DNA of 35,948 bases. It comes from an uncultured Mycoplasmatota bacterium. GTDB lineage: Bacteria; Bacillota_I; Bacilli_A; RF39; UBA660. The translations under genes were made by a program, and so were the position numbers. This document shows, in pieces, positions 3,946 to 25,913 of the stretch (positions are counted from its first letter, which is position 1; the number at the start of each line of letters is the position of its first letter). The notes under the pieces were generated by a model. That model made no database searches. It was not told the origin of the DNA and saw nothing but the letters and a program-made list of their open reading frames with translations. Location of the stretch: contig CAMLTY010000008.1 of assembly GCA_946486465.1 (NCBI GenBank), forward strand, positions 1 to 35,948, written 5' to 3'.

Positions 3946-4623
3946 TTATTTATTTAAATCCTTTAAAGTTTGCAATAGGTATTTTATTTCTTTTTTAGTT
4001 ACTATTATTTTATTTCTAAATGATTTAGGTAAAGCTTTAAGAAGGGCTTGCTTGGTATTTAATATACTTTGATAATACTCTTTAGTAAGACTATCTTTTT
4101 TAGTCATTAAAACAGGTCCTAAAAAAAGTTTTTTATATGAGTAATATTTTCTTCCTTTCTTAAAGACTAATATTTCATAAATTATCTTATTTTCTTTAAC
4201 TAATGTTTCATTATCTATATGATATCCTAATTTTATTAGTTTTCTTTTAACAGCAAGAGAATAGTTATTAGGAGATAATATTAAAGTATTAATATTTTTT
4301 AAATAACTTCTATTATCATCAAGTATTTTATTGATATTAAGTCCCCCCATACCTGATATAGTAACTGTATCTATTCCTTCAATATAAGAATCTAATCCTT
4401 CGGCTTTTACTAACTTTACTTTATCAGATACTTTATAGAACTTAACATTTTCCAAGGCTTTCTTTAAAGGACCACTTTTATTATCACTAGCGACTGCTTT
4501 ACTAAGCCCTCTTTCTTTTATTAAATAAATGGACAAAAGAGCGTGATCACATCCAATATCTAGAGGATATGAAGAAAGAGGAACTAAATCCCCTATAGTT
4601 TTTAATCTGTTATTTATTTTCAT
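3946..4623 (-). CDS. trmK: tRNA (adenine(22)-N1)-methyltransferase TrmK-like
   Basis: DIGCDHALLSIYLI and TVTISGMGGLNI SAM-MTase motifs; dnaG-rpoD-trmK gene order typical of Firmicutes. Confidence 0.88.
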   Translation of the reverse strand: MKINNRLKTIGDLVPLSSYPLDIGCDHALLSIYLIKERGLSKAVASDNKSGPLKKALENVKFYKVSDKVKLVKAEGLDSYIEGIDTVTISGMGGLNINKILDDNRSYLKNINTLILSPNNYSLAVKRKLIKLGYHIDNETLVKENKIIYEILVFKKGRKYYSYKKLFLGPVLMTKKDSLTKEYYQSILNTKQALLKALPKSFRNKIIVTKKEIKYLLQTLKDLNK

Positions 4624-5715
4624 CTAATCTGTTAAGAAATCCTTTAATTTACGAGATCTAGATGGATGTCTTAGTTTTCTTAAAGCTTTCGCTTCTATTT
4701 GTCTAATACGCTCTCTTGTAACTCCAAAGATTTGTCCTACTTCTTCTAGAGTTCTACATTGTCCATCATCAAGACCAAATCTTAATCTTAGTACTTTCGC
4801 TTCTCTTTCTGTTAAAGTTGCAAGAACACTACTAAGTTCTTCTTTAAGCATTTCTTCAGTAGTATATTCTTCAGGTCCTATCATTCTATCATCTTTAATA
4901 AAGTCTCCTAAATGAGAATCATCTTCTTCCCCAATAGGTGTTTCAAGAGCAACAGGATCTTGACTAATTTTATAGACTTCTCTAACTTTTTCTACTGGCA
5001 TATCAAGTTTAGCAGCAATCTCATCATCAGTTGGTTCTCTATTTAATTCCTGGGTAAGTTGTCTTTGAATTCTTGCTAGTTTGTTAATTGTTTCTACCAT
5101 ATGAACAGGTACCCTAATAGTTCTCGCTTGATCTGCTATTGCTCTAGTTATCGCTTGTCTTATCCACCAAGTAGCATATGTAGAGAATTTATATCCTTTA
5201 GTAGGATCAAACTTCTCTACCGCTTTCATCAAACCTATATTTCCTTCTTGAATTAAGTCAAGGAAAAGCATACCTCTACCAACATAACGTTTAGCGATAG
5301 AAACAACTAAACGAAGATTAGACTCTGCAAGTATTCTTTTCGCTTCTTCATCCCCATCAACTGCACGTTCAGCATATTCAAACTCTTCATCACTAGTTAA
5401 AAGAGGGATTCTACCTATTTCTTTTAAATACATCCTAACTGGATCATTTATTTTAATATCTTTAGACATTGTCAAGTCTTCTGATTTAGTATGTTCAGTA
5501 ATCTCTTCTCCACTAGCATCATCGCTTCCATCTTCTGAAACAACATCAATGCCTTCTGCAACTAAAGCATTATATAAATCATCAAGACTATCACTATCTA
5601 CTTCAAGTCCTTTAAGTTCGTTAGCAAGTTGTTCATAAGTAATATAGCCTTGCTTTTTACCTAATTTTATAAGTTTCTCTTTTCTTTGTTCCATTGTTTT
5701 TATTTCTTCTACCAT
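4624..5715 (-). CDS. rpoD: Primary RNA polymerase sigma factor (SigA/RpoD)
   Basis: [62 protein letters not shown] and C-terminal region 4 [31 protein letters not shown]. Confidence 0.98.
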
Positions 5716-5716
5716 T

Positions 5717-7450
5717 TTAACTCTCCCCTATTCTTAGCTTTCTAATCTCTTCCGCGTATTTTACTTGTCTTACTGGATCTGTTTCATTCTTAATTTTCTC
5801 TTCTAAATTAGCAATTGTTCTTTTCAAGTTATATTCTCTTATTACTTTAAAGTAATCAAATAATTCTTCTTTAGTAACAACGGTCTTTAAATCCATTTCC
5901 AATACTTCATTTAAGAGATTAAGTAACTCTCCTTTAGGTGTTAAGTAAGTATAAAAGTCTGCTTCATTAATAAACCCATACTTATGATAAAAATAAACAA
6001 TTTCACTTTCTAATGCTCTTAAAGCTTCGGTAGGAAACACTAAATGTTCATCTTCTACCATATCGATAATATCTTGCTTATTTAACATATAATATATAAT
6101 ATTGAGGCTTGCTTTTTGATACTTATCTTTATTCTTAGGTTGTATAGTTTTTGGAGTAGTAATAACTTCTTTTGTTATCTCATTATTAGTAACTAACTCC
6201 TTAAAACTTTTTTCTAGGGTATTATACCCTATTTCAAACTTTTTTGCAAGGTCTTTTAGTATAATTTCTGTTCTAATAGAATCATTTATCTTAGATGCTT
6301 CTTCTAACACTTCATGAATATAATTAGCTTTCTCTTCACTACTTGCAAAATTACGGTTACGAGATAAGTTCTTAATCTTAAAATCACTATAGTAAATAGC
6401 GTTATTTATTAAAGCTTCAAAAGCATCTCTTCCATTTTTTAGAATATAGGTATCAGGATCATCTTCTCCTGGTAAAGAGATTACTTTAACTTCTATCCCT
6501 TCACTTTTAAATAACTCCCCAGAGGCGATAGTTGCTTTAACTCCAGCTTCATCACCATCAAAACAAAGGATAATGTTATTAGAAAGTCTTTTAATCTCTT
6601 TAATATGATCACGTGTTAAGGCCGTCCCCATAGTAGCGACCGTATTTTTAATCCCTACAGTACTAGCACGAATTATATCCATAAAGCCTTCCATTATTAT
6701 AACAGACTTTTTAACCCGTGCTTCTTCTTTTGCAATATGATAATGGTATAATAGTTTACCTTTTTTAAAAAGCTCTGTCTCTTTAGTATTAAGATATTTA
6801 TTTTGTTTACCACTAGTTATAATACGGCCACTAAATCCTATTACTTTACCATTTAAATCGTGTAAAGGAAACATTAGACGAGAATTATAGATATCATGAT
6901 CTTCATTACTAAGTCCTACTTTATTAAGTAAATCAATAGAGTGTCCCTTGGCTGTAAGTAATTTAGTAAGATCATCTCTATTTCTTAAAGAATAACCTAT
7001 TTCAAATTCTTTAACTGTCAGATCATCAATACTTCTATTCTTTAAATATTCCCTTGCCCCTTCTCCTTCTTTAGTAAGTAAATTATTTTGATAATATTTA
7101 TTAGCAAGATCATATATCTTATACCATTCATCATATTTAGTAGATATTTTTTTAGTTTTAAAGCCATTTAAAGTAATACCAACACGATTTGCTAATTCAC
7201 TTAAGACTTGATTAAACTCTTTATGTTCATAGTTCATTAAAAAAGTAAAGACATTGCCAGTCGCATGACAAGAGAAACAAGTATAGATTTGTTTTTCTCT
7301 TGATACACTCATAGAAGGATTAGTATCATCATGAAAAGGACAAACTCCAAAGTAGTTCTTACCACGTTTTTCAAGAGGAATCTTTTCACCAATAACATCA
7401 ACAATATCATTACGTCTTCTTACTTCATTAATAATATCTTGATTATTCAT
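5717..7450 (-). CDS. dnaG: DNA primase
   Basis: Zinc finger [45 protein letters not shown]. Start moved from 7468 to ATG at 7450 because of GGAGGG just upstream. Confidence 0.96.
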
Positions 7451-7478
7451 GATATCCCTCCTTACCAATCTACCAATT

Positions 7479-7484
7479 ATTTTA
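7479..7484 (-). promoter_or_regulatory. Candidate extended -10 (TGCTAAAAT) for dnaG operon, in the cptN-dnaG gap
   Basis: Minus strand TTGTGCTAAAATAATTGG about 30 nt upstream of dnaG ATG; no good -35. Confidence 0.3.
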
Positions 7485-7504
7485 GCACAAAAGATAAGAA
7501 AGTT

Positions 7505-8005
7505 CTATAAACTACTAGAATTTTCTAATTGCATATTATCAAGTTCTTTTAACATTTGTTCTTTAATTTTATCAATATCAGTAAAAAATAAGTTTATACC
7601 TTTTGACTTTAACTTTAATAAATATTTAAAACTGTTAAGTATCTCATTTTGTAATGAATCAATTACCTTGGCAGGACGCCCATTCTCAAGTAAATGTATA
7701 TGGTCTATATATTTATCTAAAGTAGGAAAAGCATTTTGAATAAGAATTGCAGAATCTTCTCCTAATACTTTTCGTATCAAAATACTATCACATCGTCCAT
7801 ATTTTTTAATCTTATTATTTATAATTCGTTTATATTTATTAACTTTGCTACTTAGAGGAATAAACCATAATATTTTCTTATCTTTAATAACAAAATATGT
7901 AGGTCTTTTATGTCCTCTTTCTTTATTAGTCATAAGATTTTCATCATTAACAATACCAAAAAATTCATCTTTAATATGGTACAAATAACCAGGTTTTATT
8001 TTCAT
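7505..8005 (-). CDS. cptN: Type III toxin-antitoxin system endoribonuclease toxin, CptN family-like
   Basis: 166 aa; MKIKPGYLYHIKDEFF...RPTYFVIKDKKILWFIPLSSKV recalls CptIN-family toxins; preceded by tandem-repeat RNA and terminator. GGGGGTG RBS upstream. Confidence 0.82.
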   Translation of the reverse strand: MKIKPGYLYHIKDEFFGIVNDENLMTNKERGHKRPTYFVIKDKKILWFIPLSSKVNKYKRIINNKIKKYGRCDSILIRKVLGEDSAILIQNAFPTLDKYIDHIHLLENGRPAKVIDSLQNEILNSFKYLLKLKSKGINLFFTDIDKIKEQMLKELDNMQLENSSSL

Positions 8006-8042
8006 TTTTTGTACACCCCCAGAATATATAAATTGTAACTTA

Positions 8043-8072
8043 AGTGTACTACATTAAAAATATGTTCGTCAA
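8043..8072 (-). promoter_or_regulatory. Candidate cptN-proximal promoter TTGACG-N18-TACACT
   Basis: Minus strand ATTGACGAACATATTTTTAATGTAGTACACTT, between the cptI terminator and cptN start. Confidence 0.55.
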
Positions 8073-8087
8073 TGCTTTTTTCAAAAT

Positions 8088-8118
8088 TTAAAAAGAAAAT
8101 TCTATCTTTATGATAGAA
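8088..8118 (-). terminator. Intrinsic terminator between cptI RNA and cptN
   Basis: TTCTATC-ataaa-GATAGAA followed by TTTTCTTTTT on the minus strand. Confidence 0.75.
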
Positions 8119-8124
8119 CTTTCC

Positions 8125-8235
8125 AAAACATTTTCACCCGGAATAATTTATTACTCGCACCATCCGGGAGCGAGAAACATTGTCGACCGGAATAATTTAT
8201 TACTCGCACCATCCGGGAGCGAGAAACATTTTCAT
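8125..8235 (-). repeat. Tandem repeat, 49-nt period, two full copies (8138-8186, 8187-8235) plus 13-nt partial (8125-8137)
   Basis: CCGGAATAATTTATTACTCGCACCATCCGGGAGCGAGAAACATT(G/T)TC(G/A)(A/T) repeated; first 44 nt identical. Confidence 0.95.
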
Positions 8236-8297
8236 ATATGTAAGTAAAACTACTTACTTTTATATTATATGAAATCTCTTTCATTTAATACATCTTT

Positions 8298-8326
8298 ATT
8301 GTATCATAACAAACTAGTTTAGTAAA
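8298..8326 (-). promoter_or_regulatory. cptI promoter TTTACT-N17-TACAAT
   Basis: Minus strand -35 at 8321-8326 and -10 at 8298-8303, 17-bp spacer; duplicated at 9147-9175. Confidence 0.7.
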
Positions 8327-8353
8327 TATTTTTTACATCATAAGAATCAATTC

Positions 8354-8899
8354 CTACAAAGTAGAATCTTTTGTTTTTAAATATTTTATATTTTTTTCTA
8401 ACAATTTAAAATTACAGCAACGTTCACTAAGTCTTGAATTAGGATTATTAATTTTCTCAAAATATAGCTTTCTTGCTTTTATACATATATCGTTTCTCCT
8501 AGCATTTATTATTTTCATCTCTTTATCTAATAAACTAATGTATTTATATCGTTCTTTTTTATTTTTGAACTTTCTGTAATTATTTATATTATTATATTTC
8601 AAAGCACTTGCCTCACTTGATAAAACTGGGATCATATTATTTAGATTTAAAACTCCTAATATTTTAGAATGGTCTTTTATTATGACAAAATCTTTGCCTT
8701 CTTTCATTTTATAATGCTTTTCTTTTACAGATGAAATAGGCACATAATAGTTAAAATTATTTATTTGTAACACAATTCCTATATATGGTTTAATCTCATT
8801 ATCACCATAGTCTATATTTTGGACAAGGCTATCAAACTGTCGTAAATATTCAACATATTTCTTAGAAAGCACATACCATGAGAGATGTTCACTATTCAA
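8354..8899 (-). CDS. toxN: Type III toxin-antitoxin system toxin, ToxN/AbiQ family-like
   Basis: 181 aa; KPYIGIVLQINNFNYYVPISSVKEKH...DFVIIKDHSKILGVLNLNNMIPV matches ToxN/AbiQ style; TTG start with AGGAGG; tandem-repeat RNA upstream. Confidence 0.85.
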   Translation of the reverse strand: MNSEHLSWYVLSKKYVEYLRQFDSLVQNIDYGDNEIKPYIGIVLQINNFNYYVPISSVKEKHYKMKEGKDFVIIKDHSKILGVLNLNNMIPVLSSEASALKYNNINNYRKFKNKKERYKYISLLDKEMKIINARRNDICIKARKLYFEKINNPNSRLSERCCNFKLLEKNIKYLKTKDSTL

Positions 8900-9002
8900 T
8901 TTTTCCTCCTTCCATATATTTTTTTCATGAACACCTAATTTTTCAACTAAGAACCCTTATCGCATTTATATTTTAACAATATATTAAATTTTTAGCAAAT
9001 AT

Positions 9003-9037
9003 AATTAACAAAAGAGATGACTAATTATCATCTCTTT
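9003..9037 (-). terminator. Intrinsic terminator between toxI RNA and toxN
   Basis: Perfect 10-bp stem AAAGAGATGA/TCATCTCTTT with 7-nt loop; weak U-tract TTTTGTTAATT. Confidence 0.7.
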
Positions 9038-9043
9038 ATAAAA

Positions 9044-9115
9044 CCATTTTTTACTGGAATGGTAAACCGCTTTATACGTCCATTTTTTATAGGAATGGTA
9101 AAACCCATTAATATT
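9044..9115 (-). repeat. Tandem repeat, 36-nt period (9044-9079, 9080-9115; second copy diverged at one end)
   Basis: CCATTTTTTACTGGAATGGTAAACCGCTTTATACGT / CCATTTTTTATAGGAATGGTAAAACCCATTAATATT; partial CTTTATA remnant on the terminator side. Confidence 0.8.
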
Positions 9116-9146
9116 ATATGAAATCTCTTTCATTTAATACATCTTT

Positions 9147-9175
9147 ATTGTATCACAACAAACTATTTTAGTAAA
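9147..9175 (-). promoter_or_regulatory. toxI promoter TTTACT-N17-TACAAT
   Basis: -35 at 9170-9175 and -10 at 9147-9152, 17-bp spacer; lies in the 73-bp block shared with cptI. Confidence 0.7.
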
Positions 9176-9196
9176 TACTTTTTGACTTTAAATACG

Positions 9197-9205
9197 TGAT
9201 ATAAT
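9197..9205 (+). promoter_or_regulatory. Extended -10 TGATATAAT for the divergent gene 9220..9690
   Basis: CGTGATATAATAGG upstream of the + strand ORF. Confidence 0.45.
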
Positions 9206-9219
9206 AGGTTCTATCAGAA

Positions 9220-9690
9220 ATGGGGGATTTTATGTTAGAACTTATTAAGGAAAGAAAAGTGTTAAAAGATGATAGTACATTCTTTAAACTATTAAGGGTA
9301 TCACTTGAAAGAGATTTAAATGAAAAGGAACAAGGCAAATTCTTAGAATCTTCTTATAGAAATATTGATTATTTAGAAGAAGAGTTTAATACTTATAGAA
9401 ATAGTGTTGTAGGTAATTTAATTATTTATAATACTCTTATTAACAATGGTACTACTTTAATTAATGGTCTAAGAACTGGTCTTAATATAACTAAAGATAA
9501 TTTTATTAAAGAAAATATTAATCAGTTTAGTGCCCATTATCAAACAGTTAAAGAGTATGAAGAAGCTTTTTTAGAATATAGAGAAAATATTACTGATGAA
9601 AGTTATGATAAGACAATAGAAAAGTATGAAGAAGCGATTGATTATAGTGATGGTTATACAAAAGAAAAGACTTTAACTAAAAAGAGTTAA
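9220..9690 (+). CDS. Hypothetical protein (start may be ATG at 9232)
   Basis: Open reading frame with upstream GGGGG RBS and extended -10. Confidence 0.6.
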   Translation: MGDFMLELIKERKVLKDDSTFFKLLRVSLERDLNEKEQGKFLESSYRNIDYLEEEFNTYRNSVVGNLIIYNTLINNGTTLINGLRTGLNITKDNFIKENINQFSAHYQTVKEYEEAFLEYRENITDESYDKTIEKYEEAIDYSDGYTKEKTLTKKS

Positions 9691-9698
9691 GGTCTTTT
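9665..9698. terminator. Bidirectional terminator hairpin between convergent genes
   Basis: AAAAGACTTTAACT...AGTTAAGGTCTTTT overlaps the stop codon of 9220..9690. Confidence 0.6.
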
Positions 9699-10506
9699 AA
9701 AATTCACTCCCCCTATTAAGATTTGCAAGTTCTATTAAGTAACTATTATCTATACTGTCTCTTGTTTCAAAGATATAAGTATAACTAGTTAATTCATCTT
9801 TATATGGTTCTATTAAATTATTAATGTCACTATCTTCATAATCATTATCTTCTTCATATAAATCTACTACTAAGTTTTTATTATTTACTAAGTCAGTATA
9901 ACTACCAAAATAAGATGAAGTATTTGGATAAGCGAAAGCTTTCTTTAAGGTTATAGAATAGATTAATTTATCTCCTTCTACTCTTCTTTCTCCTTCTACA
10001 TAATAGTTTTCTATAGATAAAGGAGTATAGCCGCTATGAGCATGATAATCATTATCTGCTTTATACATATTAGTATTACTATCATAGATTAGATAATCTC
10101 CATCATCTAAAAAGCAAGTAGAATTGACAGGATTAAAGGTTGTTTTAGGTCCAAAATATTTTTTTAAGACTCTTTTTACTCTATCTAAACTAACACCAGC
10201 ATTAAAATCTAAACCAAGGTCTTTTTTTACATTAAGAGGTAATCTATCTATAAAGTTAATCTTTTCTTTATCTGTTAAAGTACTTAAATCTTTAGTACCA
10301 TCAAAAGTAATTATATAACTGTCATAAATATTAACTAATTCTAATAAAGATGTCACTTCTTTAGTAGAAAGACTACTACTATCTTCATTAAATGTTTCCC
10401 TACTTTCTCCTTTTAGATTAATATTAACTATAAATATGATGGATGCTACTATTATGAGGGTTATTAAAGCAATAAATAACATCCCTACTCTTCTTGCATT
10501 TTCCAT
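9697..10506 (-). CDS. Membrane-anchored hypothetical protein
   Basis: N-terminal TM GMLFIALITLIIVASIIFIVNI then soluble extracytoplasmic-type domain. Confidence 0.65.
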   Translation of the reverse strand: MENARRVGMLFIALITLIIVASIIFIVNINLKGESRETFNEDSSSLSTKEVTSLLELVNIYDSYIITFDGTKDLSTLTDKEKINFIDRLPLNVKKDLGLDFNAGVSLDRVKRVLKKYFGPKTTFNPVNSTCFLDDGDYLIYDSNTNMYKADNDYHAHSGYTPLSIENYYVEGERRVEGDKLIYSITLKKAFAYPNTSSYFGSYTDLVNNKNLVVDLYEEDNDYEDSDINNLIEPYKDELTSYTYIFETRDSIDNSYLIELANLNRGSEF

Positions 10507-10576
10507 AAGCTTAGCTTCCTTTCTTACTTACTTAGAGTATAAGGGAAGAATAAAAAATATTCTATAAAAAAAGAAA

Positions 10577-10600
10577 AAAGACATGTAAATTTACACGTCT
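10577..10600 (-). terminator. Intrinsic terminator downstream of aspS
   Basis: AAGACGTGTAAATTTACATGTCTTTTTTC on the minus strand. Confidence 0.75.
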
Positions 10601-11916
10601 TATGGATTTAATCTATTAGGTCCTCTAAATATCAACATTGACTCTTTAACACTAGGTAATCCTAATACTAACATAGTAAGTCTATCTACTCCTAGTCCAA
10701 AGCCACCATGAGGAGGACATCCATATTTGAAGAATTCTAGATAGAACTCTACATCTTTATCAAGACCTTTTTCTTTGGCTTGTTTAACTAAAACATCATA
10801 TCTATGCTCACGTTCTGCTCCTGTAGTTATTTCAACTCCACGATAAATTAAATCATAACCTTCAGGAATACCATCTTTACGCATATGATAGAAAGCACGT
10901 TTTTCTTTAGGATAATCTGTAACAAAGATAAACTCTGAGTTAAACTCATCCATTGCATAACGATAACTTAGTCTCTCTGCTTCTGTAGTTAAGTCATTTT
11001 TTTCACTTTCATCTACTTTATAGTCATATCTTTTTTCAAGTTCATCGTATAAATCTGCTAATTTTACTCTTGGAAACTTCTCTTTAGGAACAACTATTTC
11101 TTTTCCATATAGATTTTTAACTAATTCTCCATACTTTTCATTTAACTTCTCTAATGTATAAGTTAATAATTCTTCTTCAAAGTCCATAACATCACGATAA
11201 GAGTCAATATAGGCAAACTCTACGTCGAAACCAGTAAATTCTGTTGTGTGTCTTGAAGTATTAGAGTTTTCAGCGCGAAAAACAGGGGCAACTTCAAAGA
11301 CTCTATCATAACCACTAGCGATAGCCATTTGTTTATAAAATTGAGGTGACTGGGCAAGATATGCTTTTCTATCAAAGTATTTTACTTCAAAGACATCTGC
11401 CCCACTCTCACTGGCCGCTCCTATTAGTTTAGGGGTATGGATTTCTGTAAAGTCATGAGAATACATAAACTCACGCATATATTTAACCATATCACTTTGA
11501 ATCTTAAAGATATTAAAGTTATATTCATTTCTAAGGTCTAACCAACGATAATCTAGTCTTTGGTCAAGTAATTGAGCATCTTTATCATGAATGTTAATAG
11601 GAAGTTCTGCATCACTTGTACTAGTAACTTCTATTTTAGTTGGAATAAACTCCATTCCTCGTAATCTAACATTTTCATTTTTCTTTAATATTCCTGTTAC
11701 TTTAATAGTAGATTCTACAGTTAAGTTATTAGCTAACTCTACCATCTCAGCATTATTTTCATCACTCTTTTCAATAGTTACTTGAATCTTCCCAGTAGAG
11801 TCTCTAAGTACTAAGAACTGTACCCATTTAATATTTCTAATATTTTCAACAAAACCACTAAGTTCTATTTCTTTATCAAAATAATTTTCTAAATCTTTGA
11901 AATAAATTTTTTTCAT
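10600..11916 (-). CDS. aspS: Aspartyl-tRNA synthetase, archaeal/eukaryotic-type short form (possibly non-discriminating Asp-tRNA(Asp/Asn) ligase)
   Basis: 438 aa, lacks the bacterial GAD insertion; TEFTGFDVEFAY, GVEITTGAEREHRYD, GCPPHGGFGLGVDRLTMLVLGLPSVKESMLIFRGPNRLNP. Confidence 0.9.
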   Translation of the reverse strand: MKKIYFKDLENYFDKEIELSGFVENIRNIKWVQFLVLRDSTGKIQVTIEKSDENNAEMVELANNLTVESTIKVTGILKKNENVRLRGMEFIPTKIEVTSTSDAELPINIHDKDAQLLDQRLDYRWLDLRNEYNFNIFKIQSDMVKYMREFMYSHDFTEIHTPKLIGAASESGADVFEVKYFDRKAYLAQSPQFYKQMAIASGYDRVFEVAPVFRAENSNTSRHTTEFTGFDVEFAYIDSYRDVMDFEEELLTYTLEKLNEKYGELVKNLYGKEIVVPKEKFPRVKLADLYDELEKRYDYKVDESEKNDLTTEAERLSYRYAMDEFNSEFIFVTDYPKEKRAFYHMRKDGIPEGYDLIYRGVEITTGAEREHRYDVLVKQAKEKGLDKDVEFYLEFFKYGCPPHGGFGLGVDRLTMLVLGLPSVKESMLIFRGPNRLNP

Positions 11917-15414: not shown

Positions 15415-16554
15415 TTAACTTTGGTAGTGTAACTTCAATCCTTCAAACATTATGTTTAAACTTGCATTTATATCTCTATCATTATGTGAGCCACATTTTG
15501 GGCAATCATATTCTCTTATACTCAAATCTTTTAACTTACTATTCTTATATCCACAATGACTACATATTTGACTACTTGGATAATAGGTATTTATTTTATA
15601 ATAAATCTTTCCTTTTATCTTACATTTCCATTCTATTAGAGAACGTAATGTACTAACAGCAGCATCTGATAGACTTTTATTAAATGCTTTTCTCTTATCT
15701 TTAAACATATCTTTTACTAATAAACTCTCTGTTACTATAATATCATGGTCATTCACTATCTCCTTTGCAATGTCATTTAAATAATGTTTTCTATAATTTT
15801 TAATCTTAGCATGTAACCTTGCTATTTTCTCTTTTGTCTTTAAATAATTCTTACTTCCTTTAACTTGTCTTGATAACTTTCTTTGTAATCTTTGTAATCT
15901 CTTTTCATACTTCATTAATACTTTCTCATTACTATATTTAATTCCATCACTTGTTACTACTAAATCTTTTATACCTAAGTCTATTCCTACTATACTAGTA
16001 GGTGTTATTACTTTTTCTACTAACAAATCTTCTTCTACTAATACACTTACATAATACTTATTAGTTGTATCTTTTGATATAGTCGCATTTACTATTTTTC
16101 CTTCTATTATGTCTTTATTTCTATATCCTCTTATTTTAACTCTACCTAGTTTAGGTAATTTTATATTTCTAGTTAGTAAATCTACTTCTATATTACTATA
16201 CTCTTTACCTTTATAAGTACTTCTTATACAACTAGTTCTATAAGATTGTCTACTAAACTTACTCTTAAACCTTGGGATTTCACTTCTCTTAGCAAAGAAG
16301 TTATTAAAACCATCTTCTAAATCAAATATAGAACATCTTAAGGCACATGAATCTACTTCTTTAAGGTATTCATGATTGTTTTCTAATTCTTTTAAATCTT
16401 TACACAAATCAAATGATTTCTTTACTCCATTTTCTTTTTGATAATTTAGATAGTAGTTATAAACAAATCTACTACATCCAAAAGTTTTATGTATTAATAT
16501 TCTTTGTTCTTCTGTTGGATATAACCTAAATTTATATGCTTTATATATTTTCAT
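15415..16554 (-). CDS. tnpB: IS200/IS605-family TnpB RNA-guided nuclease
   Basis: RuvC residues GIDLGIKD, IIVTESL, NDRDINASLNI; zinc ribbon CSHCGYKNS...YDCPKCG; N-terminal KAYKFRLYPTEEQ. Confidence 0.95.
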   Translation of the reverse strand: MKIYKAYKFRLYPTEEQRILIHKTFGCSRFVYNYYLNYQKENGVKKSFDLCKDLKELENNHEYLKEVDSCALRCSIFDLEDGFNNFFAKRSEIPRFKSKFSRQSYRTSCIRSTYKGKEYSNIEVDLLTRNIKLPKLGRVKIRGYRNKDIIEGKIVNATISKDTTNKYYVSVLVEEDLLVEKVITPTSIVGIDLGIKDLVVTSDGIKYSNEKVLMKYEKRLQRLQRKLSRQVKGSKNYLKTKEKIARLHAKIKNYRKHYLNDIAKEIVNDHDIIVTESLLVKDMFKDKRKAFNKSLSDAAVSTLRSLIEWKCKIKGKIYYKINTYYPSSQICSHCGYKNSKLKDLSIREYDCPKCGSHNDRDINASLNIMFEGLKLHYQS

Positions 16555-23204: not shown

Positions 23205-23261
23205 CTTTTTATGATTATAGGTAAGGCTTTGGCTCTGTATCCTCCGCCTTTTCCCCAACCC

Positions 23262-23298
23262 TACACCGTACGGGATTATTTCTAATCATACGGCGTGC
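23262..23298 (-). ncRNA. Group II intron domain V-like hairpin
   Basis: Minus strand GGCACGCCGTATGATTA-GAAA-TAATCCCGTACGGTGT: long stem, 2-nt bulge, GAAA tetraloop. Confidence 0.8.
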
Positions 23299-23350
23299 CA
23301 TCAAAGTTAGTCTTTTACTTTTACTCTGTTTATATTATAGAGTTCCAAAA

Positions 23351-25105
23351 CTAAATTGTTAGCAAGTTGTTCTCCTTTCTTATAATATTTATTTCCTCTA
23401 GTTGTTTAGAAGTCAACCCCTTTTTGAGTCTTATCATCTCTATCAAGTCATCAACTTCTTTCTTTTCTATTAGTTCTTTTACTTTCTTTTCTACTAAAAT
23501 TATATTATCATATTTATTGTTGAAAGGAGTATTTTCCCTTTTAACTATTTTTAAATTTGATATATCTAGTATCATTTTATTAGTAAAAGCATATTTACCT
23601 AATTGTCCACAGAATTTTGATATTACATTATCATTAAATTCTACTGTCTTATTTAGGTAAGGATTTTTGAGTATTACCTCTGTCATATAAAGTTTTTTAA
23701 TCTTTAGTTCTTTATAGAACTTATCTCTTGATTTACTATCATAGTAATCAATTTTATCTCCTTTATATTTCGGCTCTTGATATTTTACTTTTTCTATCAA
23801 GGCTAGAGGTTTTCCTCTTATATATGGTATCTTTTTGCCATATGTTTTTACTACAAAGTTATCTTCATCGATATCTTCGTTGAAAGTAAGAACTCCTAAG
23901 AAATTCTTATTTATGTATGCATTTATTATAATCCCAAGTTTATGCAAGTTAGATAATATATTAGTGGCTTTAGAGTAATAACCATGTGTTCCTATCACCA
24001 TACTATTATATTTATCTATTTCTTCCTTGCATTTTTTCTTATTCCATTTACTTTTCTTAACTATTCGTATTTGCTTTTTAAGTTTATCAGTTGTATTCTT
24101 AATAGCCTTATCAGTCATATTACTAACTACTTTTAACTTACCCTTATGTTTCTTTAGTTTAAATCTAAGACCTAGAAAATAGGAGTTTGTTTTCTTTAGA
24201 TTTACTATTTTGGTTTTCTCTTCACTCACTTCAAGTTTTAGCCTTTTCTTTAGCCATATTGTTGTTTTATCTAACATATCACTTGCAATCTGATATGTAG
24301 GACACAATATTTTAAAGTCATCGGCATATCTCACACATCGAATACCTTTATTCTTTTTACTATCTAACCACCAATCTAGTTCATTTAACACTACATTTGC
24401 AAGTAGTGGTGATAGTATTCCTCCTTGTGGAGTCCCCTTATTAGGTATTCCTACACCTTTAACTTCTGCTTTTAGCATCTTTGAAATGATTGACAGTAGA
24501 TTCTTATCTCGTATTCCTAGTTGCCATAACTGTTTTAAGAGTTTACCATGGTCTATATTATCAAAGAATCCTTTGATATCTATATCTACCACATAGTAAA
24601 GCTTTTCTTTTATGATGTAATTAGTCATTTGACTTATTGCCCTAGAACAACTTCTTCCTTCTATAAAGCCATTACTATTATTATGAAATTTAGGAATTAG
24701 TATTGGGTTTAGTACTTGATATATCGCTTGTTCAACAATTTTATCTATTGGTTCTTTTATTCCTAGATATCTAATTTTTCCATTAGACTTTGGAATACCA
24801 ACTCTTTTAATCATTGACGGTTTATAATTATCTAGTTGTTCCTTTATCTTCTTCAAGTACTTATAGAGTTTCATTTTACTTATAAAATCCATATTATTAC
24901 CACTTAGTCCTCTAGCTTTACTTCCACCATTATTTTTGATGTTTCTATAGGCTAGCCTAATGTTAGTATCTTCATTTATGTATTTCATTAAATCATGAAA
25001 TACATATTTATTTTTACTTCTTTTATTAAGTACATCAAACTCTTCTTGCATACAATAATATTCGTTATTTCTTAGTTGCACGATTTTAGTTTTCTCTTCT
25101 CCCAT
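23351..25105 (-). CDS. ltrA: Group II intron reverse transcriptase/maturase (HNH domain apparently degenerate)
   Basis: GIPKSNGKIRYLGIKEPIDKIVEQAIYQVLNPI, GTPQGGILSPLLANVVLNELD, VRYADDFKIL. Confidence 0.96.
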   Translation of the reverse strand: MGEEKTKIVQLRNNEYYCMQEEFDVLNKRSKNKYVFHDLMKYINEDTNIRLAYRNIKNNGGSKARGLSGNNMDFISKMKLYKYLKKIKEQLDNYKPSMIKRVGIPKSNGKIRYLGIKEPIDKIVEQAIYQVLNPILIPKFHNNSNGFIEGRSCSRAISQMTNYIIKEKLYYVVDIDIKGFFDNIDHGKLLKQLWQLGIRDKNLLSIISKMLKAEVKGVGIPNKGTPQGGILSPLLANVVLNELDWWLDSKKNKGIRCVRYADDFKILCPTYQIASDMLDKTTIWLKKRLKLEVSEEKTKIVNLKKTNSYFLGLRFKLKKHKGKLKVVSNMTDKAIKNTTDKLKKQIRIVKKSKWNKKKCKEEIDKYNSMVIGTHGYYSKATNILSNLHKLGIIINAYINKNFLGVLTFNEDIDEDNFVVKTYGKKIPYIRGKPLALIEKVKYQEPKYKGDKIDYYDSKSRDKFYKELKIKKLYMTEVILKNPYLNKTVEFNDNVISKFCGQLGKYAFTNKMILDISNLKIVKRENTPFNNKYDNIILVEKKVKELIEKKEVDDLIEMIRLKKGLTSKQLEEINIIRKENNLLTI

Positions 25106-25913
25106 AGTCAGTCAGTACAGTTTCCTGCCTTATACTTCTCTTAGTCTATAATAGAACCTATGATTATTATAAACTTTTCTTGTAGAAGATTAACTCTGAC
25201 TAGTGCCTTTCCCTCCACATCTTGTTATCAATGCTTCTAAAGTACTTTTACACCGCTTTCACAAGGATTAAGTTAAGTTATAGTCATTACTTTTCCTTAA
25301 CAATACCGTCATCGCCTAATAGGACTCTTGTATTCCTTGCTTATCAAGTTCCGATAAAACTATCTATCCATATATACTTTTAGGACTTCTCTATAAGCCT
25401 GTAGACTTGATAGTACCTTTAATACTATATGGTATTTCATAGGTGATATTCTTACTTTACCACATCTACAACACCTTTGGTGTTCATGTCATTTCTAACA
25501 TGTTATCTCTAGACCTGTACACTCGAGAATTTGTCGATTAAGACTATCACTAGTTCTTAATATTCTATCCATGAGTATTTTATAGACCACCGACCTATCA
25601 TATACAGATTATACCTCTATAACCATTTCCTTGATTACTCATTAGGGTATACTTCAGTCGACTTCAGCGAGTTCCCATACATACTAATATCTATTACTAT
25701 CATTATGCATGTCGCAGTTCTTATGGAAAGCATTTCGTGGCGTTACCCACTCATTCTACTTTTCGTTTTATCAGTTGCAAGTTGTAAAAAACTTACCTAT
25801 CGCTTTTCACGATTGAACTTGCCACACATCACCACTATTAGTATAACAACTTTTTTTAAAAAAATATATAAAAAGAAAAGACTATAGTGTAAATATTTGT
25901 TATAATTAATAAA

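What the first reader, a model, noticed from the sequence alone, without database searches (positions are those of the whole stretch)
7505..9183. Two different-family type III toxin-antitoxin loci in tandem (CptIN-like + ToxIN/AbiQ-like)
On the minus strand the order is promoter - tandem-repeat RNA - terminator - toxin, twice in a row: toxI (9140-9003) to toxN-like (8899-8354), then cptI (8291-8088) to cptN-like (8005-7505). Toxin sequences read as two distinct type III toxin types, and the antitoxin repeats are unrelated in sequence and period (36 vs 49 nt). Type III TAs (ToxIN, CptIN, TenpIN) are established RNA-protein systems, with ToxIN and AbiQ known for phage abortive infection. A head-to-tail pair of different families sharing a regulatory block would be an unusual compound defence or addiction module. 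I did not check whether such tandems have been reported.
Basis: partly seen in the sequence, partly recalled or inferred. Interest (0 to 1): 0.85.

Follow-up and report, generated by a model that had tools for sequence, protein, structure and literature searches.

The report
Two RNA-neutralised toxin modules in tandem
A gut bacterium carries two different kinds of RNA-inhibited toxin gene side by side under two copies of the same promoter, and related bacteria show that such units are gained, lost and reordered at that site, probably by recombination at the shared promoter-leader sequence.

Summary
ORF 8354-8899(-) is a ToxN/AbiQ-family toxin and ORF 7505-8005(-) a CptN-family toxin. Each is preceded by promoter, family-typical tandem repeats (36 and 49 nt) and a terminator. 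CptI folds as a pseudoknot supported by strong covariation across relatives. The two units do not share one regulatory block. They carry two 76-nt copies (72/76 identical) of a promoter plus 5' hairpin leader. In 35 genomes of the genus (Candidatus Onthousia by contig match) the exact hairpin pattern occurs at 35 places, and all 35 are followed by ToxI or CptI repeats, 10 of them without a toxin. So it is a leader specific to type III toxin-antitoxin units and common to two families. A sister species has only CptIN with one leader at the same dnaG-upstream site; the extra segment here is exactly one leader plus one ToxIN unit. Another species has the units in the opposite order; others have CptIN pairs or orphan antitoxins. 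Best reading: two independent canonical type III modules in a hotspot where units recombine at a common leader. The families are known; the mixed arrays and common leader look unreported, but the founding 2012 survey could not be read.

The parts
9108..9183 (-). toxI leader: promoter (TTTACT-17-TACAAT) plus 5' hairpin TATTA-A-ATGAAA(GAGA)TTTCAT-A-TAATA at 9112-9139
   Evidence: 72/76 identical to the cptI leader; 97.5% identical to the single leader of sister species G054; hairpin -6.8 kcal/mol, z -3.76; all 35 genus copies of the hairpin pattern precede type III antitoxin repeats
9034..9102 (-). toxI antitoxin repeats, 36-nt period, about two copies
   Evidence: TRF; upstream repeats at ToxN loci of relatives are 34-37 nt in 39 of 51
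9011..9037 (-). toxI Rho-independent terminator
   Evidence: -12.2 kcal/mol, z -4.93
8970..8998 (-). promoter-like TTGCTA-17-TAAAAT between toxI terminator and toxN (also in L149); weak
8354..8899 (-). toxN: ToxN/AbiQ-family endoribonuclease toxin, 181 aa
   Evidence: PF13958 E=3.6e-48, 164 bits vs cut-off 25; PADLOC AbiQ 1.1e-32; PDB 2xd0, 4ato, 7d8o, 4glk
8259..8334 (-). cptI leader: second copy of promoter plus hairpin (hairpin 8263-8290)
   Evidence: 92.5% identical to the G054 leader
8126..8234 (-). cptI antitoxin repeats, 49-nt period, 2.2 copies; each unit an H-type pseudoknot
   Evidence: TRF score 190; 94.2% of pair cells form, 8 of 10 pairs with compensatory changes in 33 distinct units
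8094..8124 (-). cptI Rho-independent terminator
   Evidence: -13.9 kcal/mol, z -5.55
8043..8072 (-). promoter-like TTGACG-18-TACACT between cptI terminator and cptN, conserved in dnaG-locus CptINs and homologous to the upstream region of IS605-type tnpB
7505..8005 (-). cptN: CptIN-family toxin, 166 aa
   Evidence: NF047359 E=2.6e-47, 160 bits vs cut-off 90; PDB 4rmo CptN E=2e-18 over residues 6-150
7488..7528 (-). hairpin overlapping the 3' end of cptN, resembling the cptI terminator; possible partner for deletions that leave orphan cptI
   Evidence: sequence comparison with L140, L145; fold -6.8 kcal/mol, z -1.28, not significant
5717..7450 (-). dnaG (then rpoD 4624-5715): the fixed flank of the hotspot
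   Evidence: identified by conserved order and own knowledge of DnaG/RpoD
9220..9690 (+). ORF156, divergent, unknown function: the other fixed flank
   Evidence: no confident family hit; found in 23 of 35 genus genomes

Best explanation
The locus is two complete, independent type III toxin-antitoxin modules: ToxIN (upstream) and CptIN (downstream, next to dnaG). In each, the leader promoter makes an antitoxin precursor RNA; the terminator lets only some transcription reach the toxin; the toxin, a ribonuclease, cuts the precursor into pseudoknot units that then inhibit it; loss of antitoxin supply frees the toxin. Shown here: family membership, anatomy, the CptI pseudoknot, the TA-specific common leader, and the different arrangements in relatives. 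Inferred: that the unit count and order change by homologous recombination at the shared leader (and at terminator-like repeats), so ToxIN was inserted next to a resident CptIN; that both toxins are active RNases; and that the two antitoxins do not cross-neutralise.
For: Families. Periods typical of each family in relatives: CptN 48-51 nt in 39 of 60 loci, ToxN 34-37 nt in 39 of 51. CptI pseudoknot covariation: 59 double-change cells against 17 in shuffles, second stem 97.6% paired. Leader: duplicated 72/76; 35 of 35 genus occurrences precede ToxI or CptI repeats (12 ToxN units, 13 CptN units, 6 orphan cptI, 4 orphan toxI), reversed-pattern control 0; also at ToxN and CptN loci in other genera. 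Empty site: window 4555-8334 aligns to L047 1-3782 and window 9108-11842 to L047 3707-6438, overlapping by 76 nt, which is one leader. Different arrangements at one site. ToxN of G000 and G256 is closer at degenerate silent sites (80%) than neighbouring dnaG (54%) or cptN (51%), so ToxIN moved more recently than its neighbours.
Against: No expression, processing or toxicity data. The genome is a draft (109 contigs, 86.9% complete). The single leader in G054 could instead be a deletion product. Promoter-like sites before cptN and toxN suggest toxin transcription may not depend only on read-through. The CptN residue aligned with Tyr104 of CptN_Er is His, so cleavage specificity may differ.
Confidence: 0.8

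Rival explanations
1. The ToxIN-CptIN pair is old at this site and G054 and others lost ToxIN by recombination between the two leaders; the array here is the ancestral state rather than a gain.
For: Orphan toxI at the same place in G276 and G265 shows that toxN is lost there; orphan cptI in five or more species shows loss is frequent.
Against: ToxIN lies on the other side of CptIN in G256; ToxN is closer between G000 and G256 at silent sites than its neighbours; most relatives with an intact site show no toxI trace.
Confidence: 0.35
2. A true compound module: the two antitoxins or toxins act on each other, and the pair is selected as one unit.
For: Near-identical leaders predict coordinated antitoxin supply; no terminator-like site was found between toxN and the cptI leader, so toxN transcripts may run into cptI.
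Against: Units occur separately and in both orders; published CptI RNAs do not neutralise even other CptNs at 35-44% identity (PMC4627078).
Confidence: 0.07
3. The leader hairpin is a DNA operator for a repressor rather than an RNA structure.
For: It is a palindrome just downstream of the -10; RNA covariation is modest (3 pairs with two-sided changes).
Against: The loop length varies between copies, which a dimer-bound operator would not usually tolerate; 95.2% of pair cells still form.
Confidence: 0.3
4. One or both units are decaying relics.
For: Broken cptN and orphan antitoxins are common in relatives.
Against: Both ORFs are full length with intact repeats, terminators and start signals; cptN is 94% identical to that of G054 with most change at third positions.
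Confidence: 0.08
5. Assembly chimera of two loci.
For: Draft metagenome assembly; some relatives' contigs end near this site.
Against: Same units at the same site in G256 (opposite order) and toxI traces there in G276 and G265.
Confidence: 0.02

Closest known systems
ToxIN family, type III TA (ToxIN of P. atrosepticum and B. thuringiensis; AbiQ of L. lactis)
   Same: ToxN-family toxin, 34-38-nt antitoxin repeats, terminator between them
   Different: Sits in tandem with a CptIN unit under a near-identical leader; only about two repeats
CptIN family, type III TA (CptIN of Eubacterium rectale, PDB 4rmo)
   Same: CptN-family toxin, about two repeats of 45-51 nt, H-type pseudoknot with very short L1 and long A-rich L2, terminator
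   Different: Promoter-like block between terminator and toxin; His where CptN_Er has Tyr104; part of a recombining array
Genomes with several type III families listed in a review (Marvinbryantia formatexigens, Clostridium sp. HGF2; PMC6315513 Table 3)
   Same: ToxIN and CptIN together in one genome
   Different: Adjacency, common leader and orphan antitoxins are not described in the passages that I read

Membership tests
ToxIN (type III TA) | Toxin belongs to the ToxN family | tested here: met
   PF13958 E=3.6e-48, far above cut-off; AbiQ model; four solved ToxN/AbiQ chains
ToxIN (type III TA) | Tandem antitoxin repeats of about 34-38 nt directly upstream | tested here: met
   Period 36, 1.9 copies; relatives 34-37 nt
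ToxIN (type III TA) | Rho-independent terminator between repeats and toxin | tested here: met
   9037-9011
ToxIN (type III TA) | Antitoxin unit folds as H-type pseudoknot | tested here: inconclusive
   Inner stem ACCAU/AUGGU is predicted; a GG/CC or UUUAC/GUAAA crossing stem can be read, but too few alignable units for covariation
ToxIN (type III TA) | Active-site residues (Tyr29, Lys33, Thr52, Ser53, Lys55 of ToxN_Pa; PMC5086642) | tested here: inconclusive
   In the alignment the window has Ser-Ser-x-Lys at 52-55 and a Lys at 33; the Tyr29 position is ambiguous
ToxIN (type III TA) | RNase toxicity neutralised by cognate RNA; phage abortion | not testable with these tools
   Needs expression and phage assays
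CptIN (type III TA) | Toxin belongs to the CptN family | tested here: met
   NF047359 E=2.6e-47, 160 bits vs cut-off 90; 4rmo E=2e-18
CptIN (type III TA) | About two longer repeats (45-51 nt) upstream | tested here: met
   Period 49, 2.2 copies; relatives 48-51 nt
CptIN (type III TA) | H-type pseudoknot antitoxin | tested here: met
   94.2% of cells paired, 8 of 10 pairs with compensatory change, slid controls at most 48%
CptIN (type III TA) | Toxin transcribed by read-through from the antitoxin promoter | tested here: inconclusive
   Terminator present, but a conserved promoter-like block lies before cptN
CptIN (type III TA) | Active-site residues Ser-Ser-Arg and Tyr104 of CptN_Er (PMC4627078) | tested here: inconclusive
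   Ser-Ser kept; Lys for Arg and His for Tyr104 in the alignment; both usual in this subfamily
CptIN (type III TA) | Neutralisation only by its own CptI | not testable with these tools
   Needs a kill/rescue assay

The most novel reading that the evidence does not exclude
Type III modules in this lineage form a cassette system: a conserved promoter-hairpin leader, common to unrelated toxin families and found only at type III loci, serves both as regulatory RNA for the antitoxin and as the crossover site by which toxin-antitoxin units, orphan antitoxins and antitoxin repeats of different specificity are stacked, swapped and reordered at fixed sites.
Probability: 0.4. Interest if true: 0.72.

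Novelty: new variant of a known kind. Interest (0 to 1): 0.52.

Why it matters
Type III systems are usually described as single loci with a family-specific antitoxin. Here two families share a leader that marks type III antitoxins wherever it occurs in the genus, and one chromosomal site shows units being added, reordered and stripped to solo antitoxins. That gives a testable route by which RNA-neutralised toxins diversify, and a sequence tag for finding antitoxin RNAs without a toxin, which toxin-based surveys miss. Solo or mixed-specificity antitoxin arrays may protect cells from toxins they no longer carry.

Tried and rejected
LexA/SOS control of cptN: the block before cptN (CGAACATAT...) resembles half an SOS box, but its best-conserved other copies in the genome lie before IS605-type tnpB genes, so the idea was dropped; a Peptidase_S24 protein exists but was not followed. 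Rfam finds no known RNA family in the locus. CptN relatives in the phage collection: none; in plasmids only 6 distant ones. Blower et al. 2012, the founding survey, is not held, so prior reports of tandem loci could not be excluded. ToxI covariation failed for lack of alignable units. A structure prediction was not run: sequence matches to solved ToxN and CptN structures were already decisive. TenpIN was not searched for separately.

Full report
Observation. The order is leader (9183-9108), toxI repeats (9102-9034), terminator (9037-9011), toxN (8899-8354), leader (8334-8259), cptI repeats (8234-8126), terminator (8124-8094), cptN (8005-7505), then dnaG. The repeat arrays and the duplicated leader are far beyond shuffled sequence.

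Identity of the toxins. The upstream ORF matches Pfam ToxN_toxin at E=3.6e-48, the AbiQ model and four solved ToxN/AbiQ structures. The downstream ORF matches the NCBI CptIN toxin family at E=2.6e-47 and the CptN structure 4rmo.

Antitoxins. Across 111 type III toxin ORFs in relatives, the upstream repeat period is 48-51 nt for CptN and 34-37 nt for ToxN in nearly all cases where TRF finds an array (39 of 60 and 39 of 51 ORFs; most of the rest have no array detected). Thirty-three distinct CptI units support an H-type pseudoknot (CUCGC/GCGAG crossed with CCGGA/UCCGG): 94.2% of cells pair, 8 of 10 pairs show two-sided changes, and slid controls reach at most 48%. For ToxI the inner stem is clear but the crossing stem is not proven.

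The leader. The two units start with 76-nt blocks that are 72/76 identical: an extended -10 promoter and a 5' hairpin, TATTA-A-ATGAAA-GAGA-TTTCAT-A-TAATA (-6.8 kcal/mol, z -3.76). The hairpin pattern has three exact matches in this genome and 35 distinct places in 35 genomes of the genus, with none for the reversed control. I looked at all 35: each is followed within about 70 nt by ToxI or CptI repeats (the window's two copies are). Twelve lead to ToxN, thirteen to CptN (two of them broken), six to cptI without cptN, four to toxI without toxN. More diverged copies precede both toxN and cptN in other genera. Covariation of the hairpin is modest, so RNA against DNA function is open.

How the tandem arose. 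In sister species G054 the same dnaG-ORF156 interval holds CptIN only, with one leader; aligning it to the window leaves exactly one leader plus one ToxIN unit extra here. Of the four differences between the two window leaders, three lie upstream of the hairpin, and at those three the ORF156-side copy agrees with the G054 leader, as a crossover inside the leader would give (inference). Other genus members show CptIN alone (G259, G268), CptIN then ToxIN (G256), orphan toxI then CptIN (G276), orphan toxI and two CptINs (G265), CptIN then orphan cptI (G248, G252), orphan cptI alone (G245, G257, G260, G266, G270, G275), and cptI followed by a tnpB gene where cptN should be (G263). ToxN of G000 and G256 is 80% identical at degenerate silent sites against 54% for dnaG and 51% for cptN (ORF156, 72%, rests on 29 sites), so ToxIN moved between these lineages more recently than its neighbours diverged. 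Direction at this particular site (gain or loss) is not settled.

How common. ToxN and CptN are each found in about a fifth to a third of genomes of the family and order. In the 385-genome order sample the only adjacent ToxN-CptN pairs in the listed matches are this one and G278 (CptIN-ToxIN-ToxIN, L131); same-family tandems are several (L039, L132, L133, L134, L135). G080 has orphan cptI before a ToxIN (L088). So mixed tandems are rare but recurrent.

Mechanism. From established work on both families (PMC5086642, PMC4627078) each unit should run by itself: antitoxin in excess from the leader promoter, toxin by leak through the terminator, processing of the precursor by the toxin, and inhibition in a ToxIN or CptIN complex. 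Loss of transcription or of the DNA would release the toxin. One departure: dnaG-locus CptINs have a conserved TTGACR-17/18-TAYACT-like block between terminator and cptN that is homologous to the region upstream of IS605-type tnpB, so cptN may have its own promoter. Not shown experimentally.

Taxonomy.

Novelty. Families and architecture are known. A review lists genomes with both families (PMC6315513), but the passages I read describe neither adjacency nor a common leader, and the other searches of the open library found none. The 2012 survey that defined the families could not be read.

Noticed in passing
G000:C9:5959-5986 (locus L153): Own genome carries an orphan toxI array (same leader hairpin, four repeats of two types, terminator) with no toxN; the next gene is on the opposite strand.
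   Followed up: partly
L251, L253, L257: Single toxI arrays that mix two repeat types (one or two GGAAT-CCCTTGCC units, then three GGTTSAC units) before one ToxN: possible mixed-specificity antitoxin.
   Followed up: partly
window 8043-8072; window 15415-16554; L250 1778-2914: The promoter-like block before cptN is homologous to the region upstream of IS605-type tnpB; in G263 a tnpB sits directly after cptI where cptN would be.
   Followed up: partly
L140, L145, L150, L241, L252, L259: Solo leader-cptI-terminator directly upstream of dnaG without cptN; could act as antitoxin against CptN or as a plain 5' region of dnaG.
   Followed up: partly
window 23211-25779: Group II intron with reverse transcriptase ORF 23351-25105(-).
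   Followed up: no
L088 (G080:C57): Orphan cptI, then a ToxIN unit, downstream of an ORF that reads like a tyrosine recombinase.
   Followed up: no
window 9220-9690: ORF156, a protein of unknown function divergent from the leader, found in 23 of 35 genus genomes but fast-evolving.
   Followed up: no
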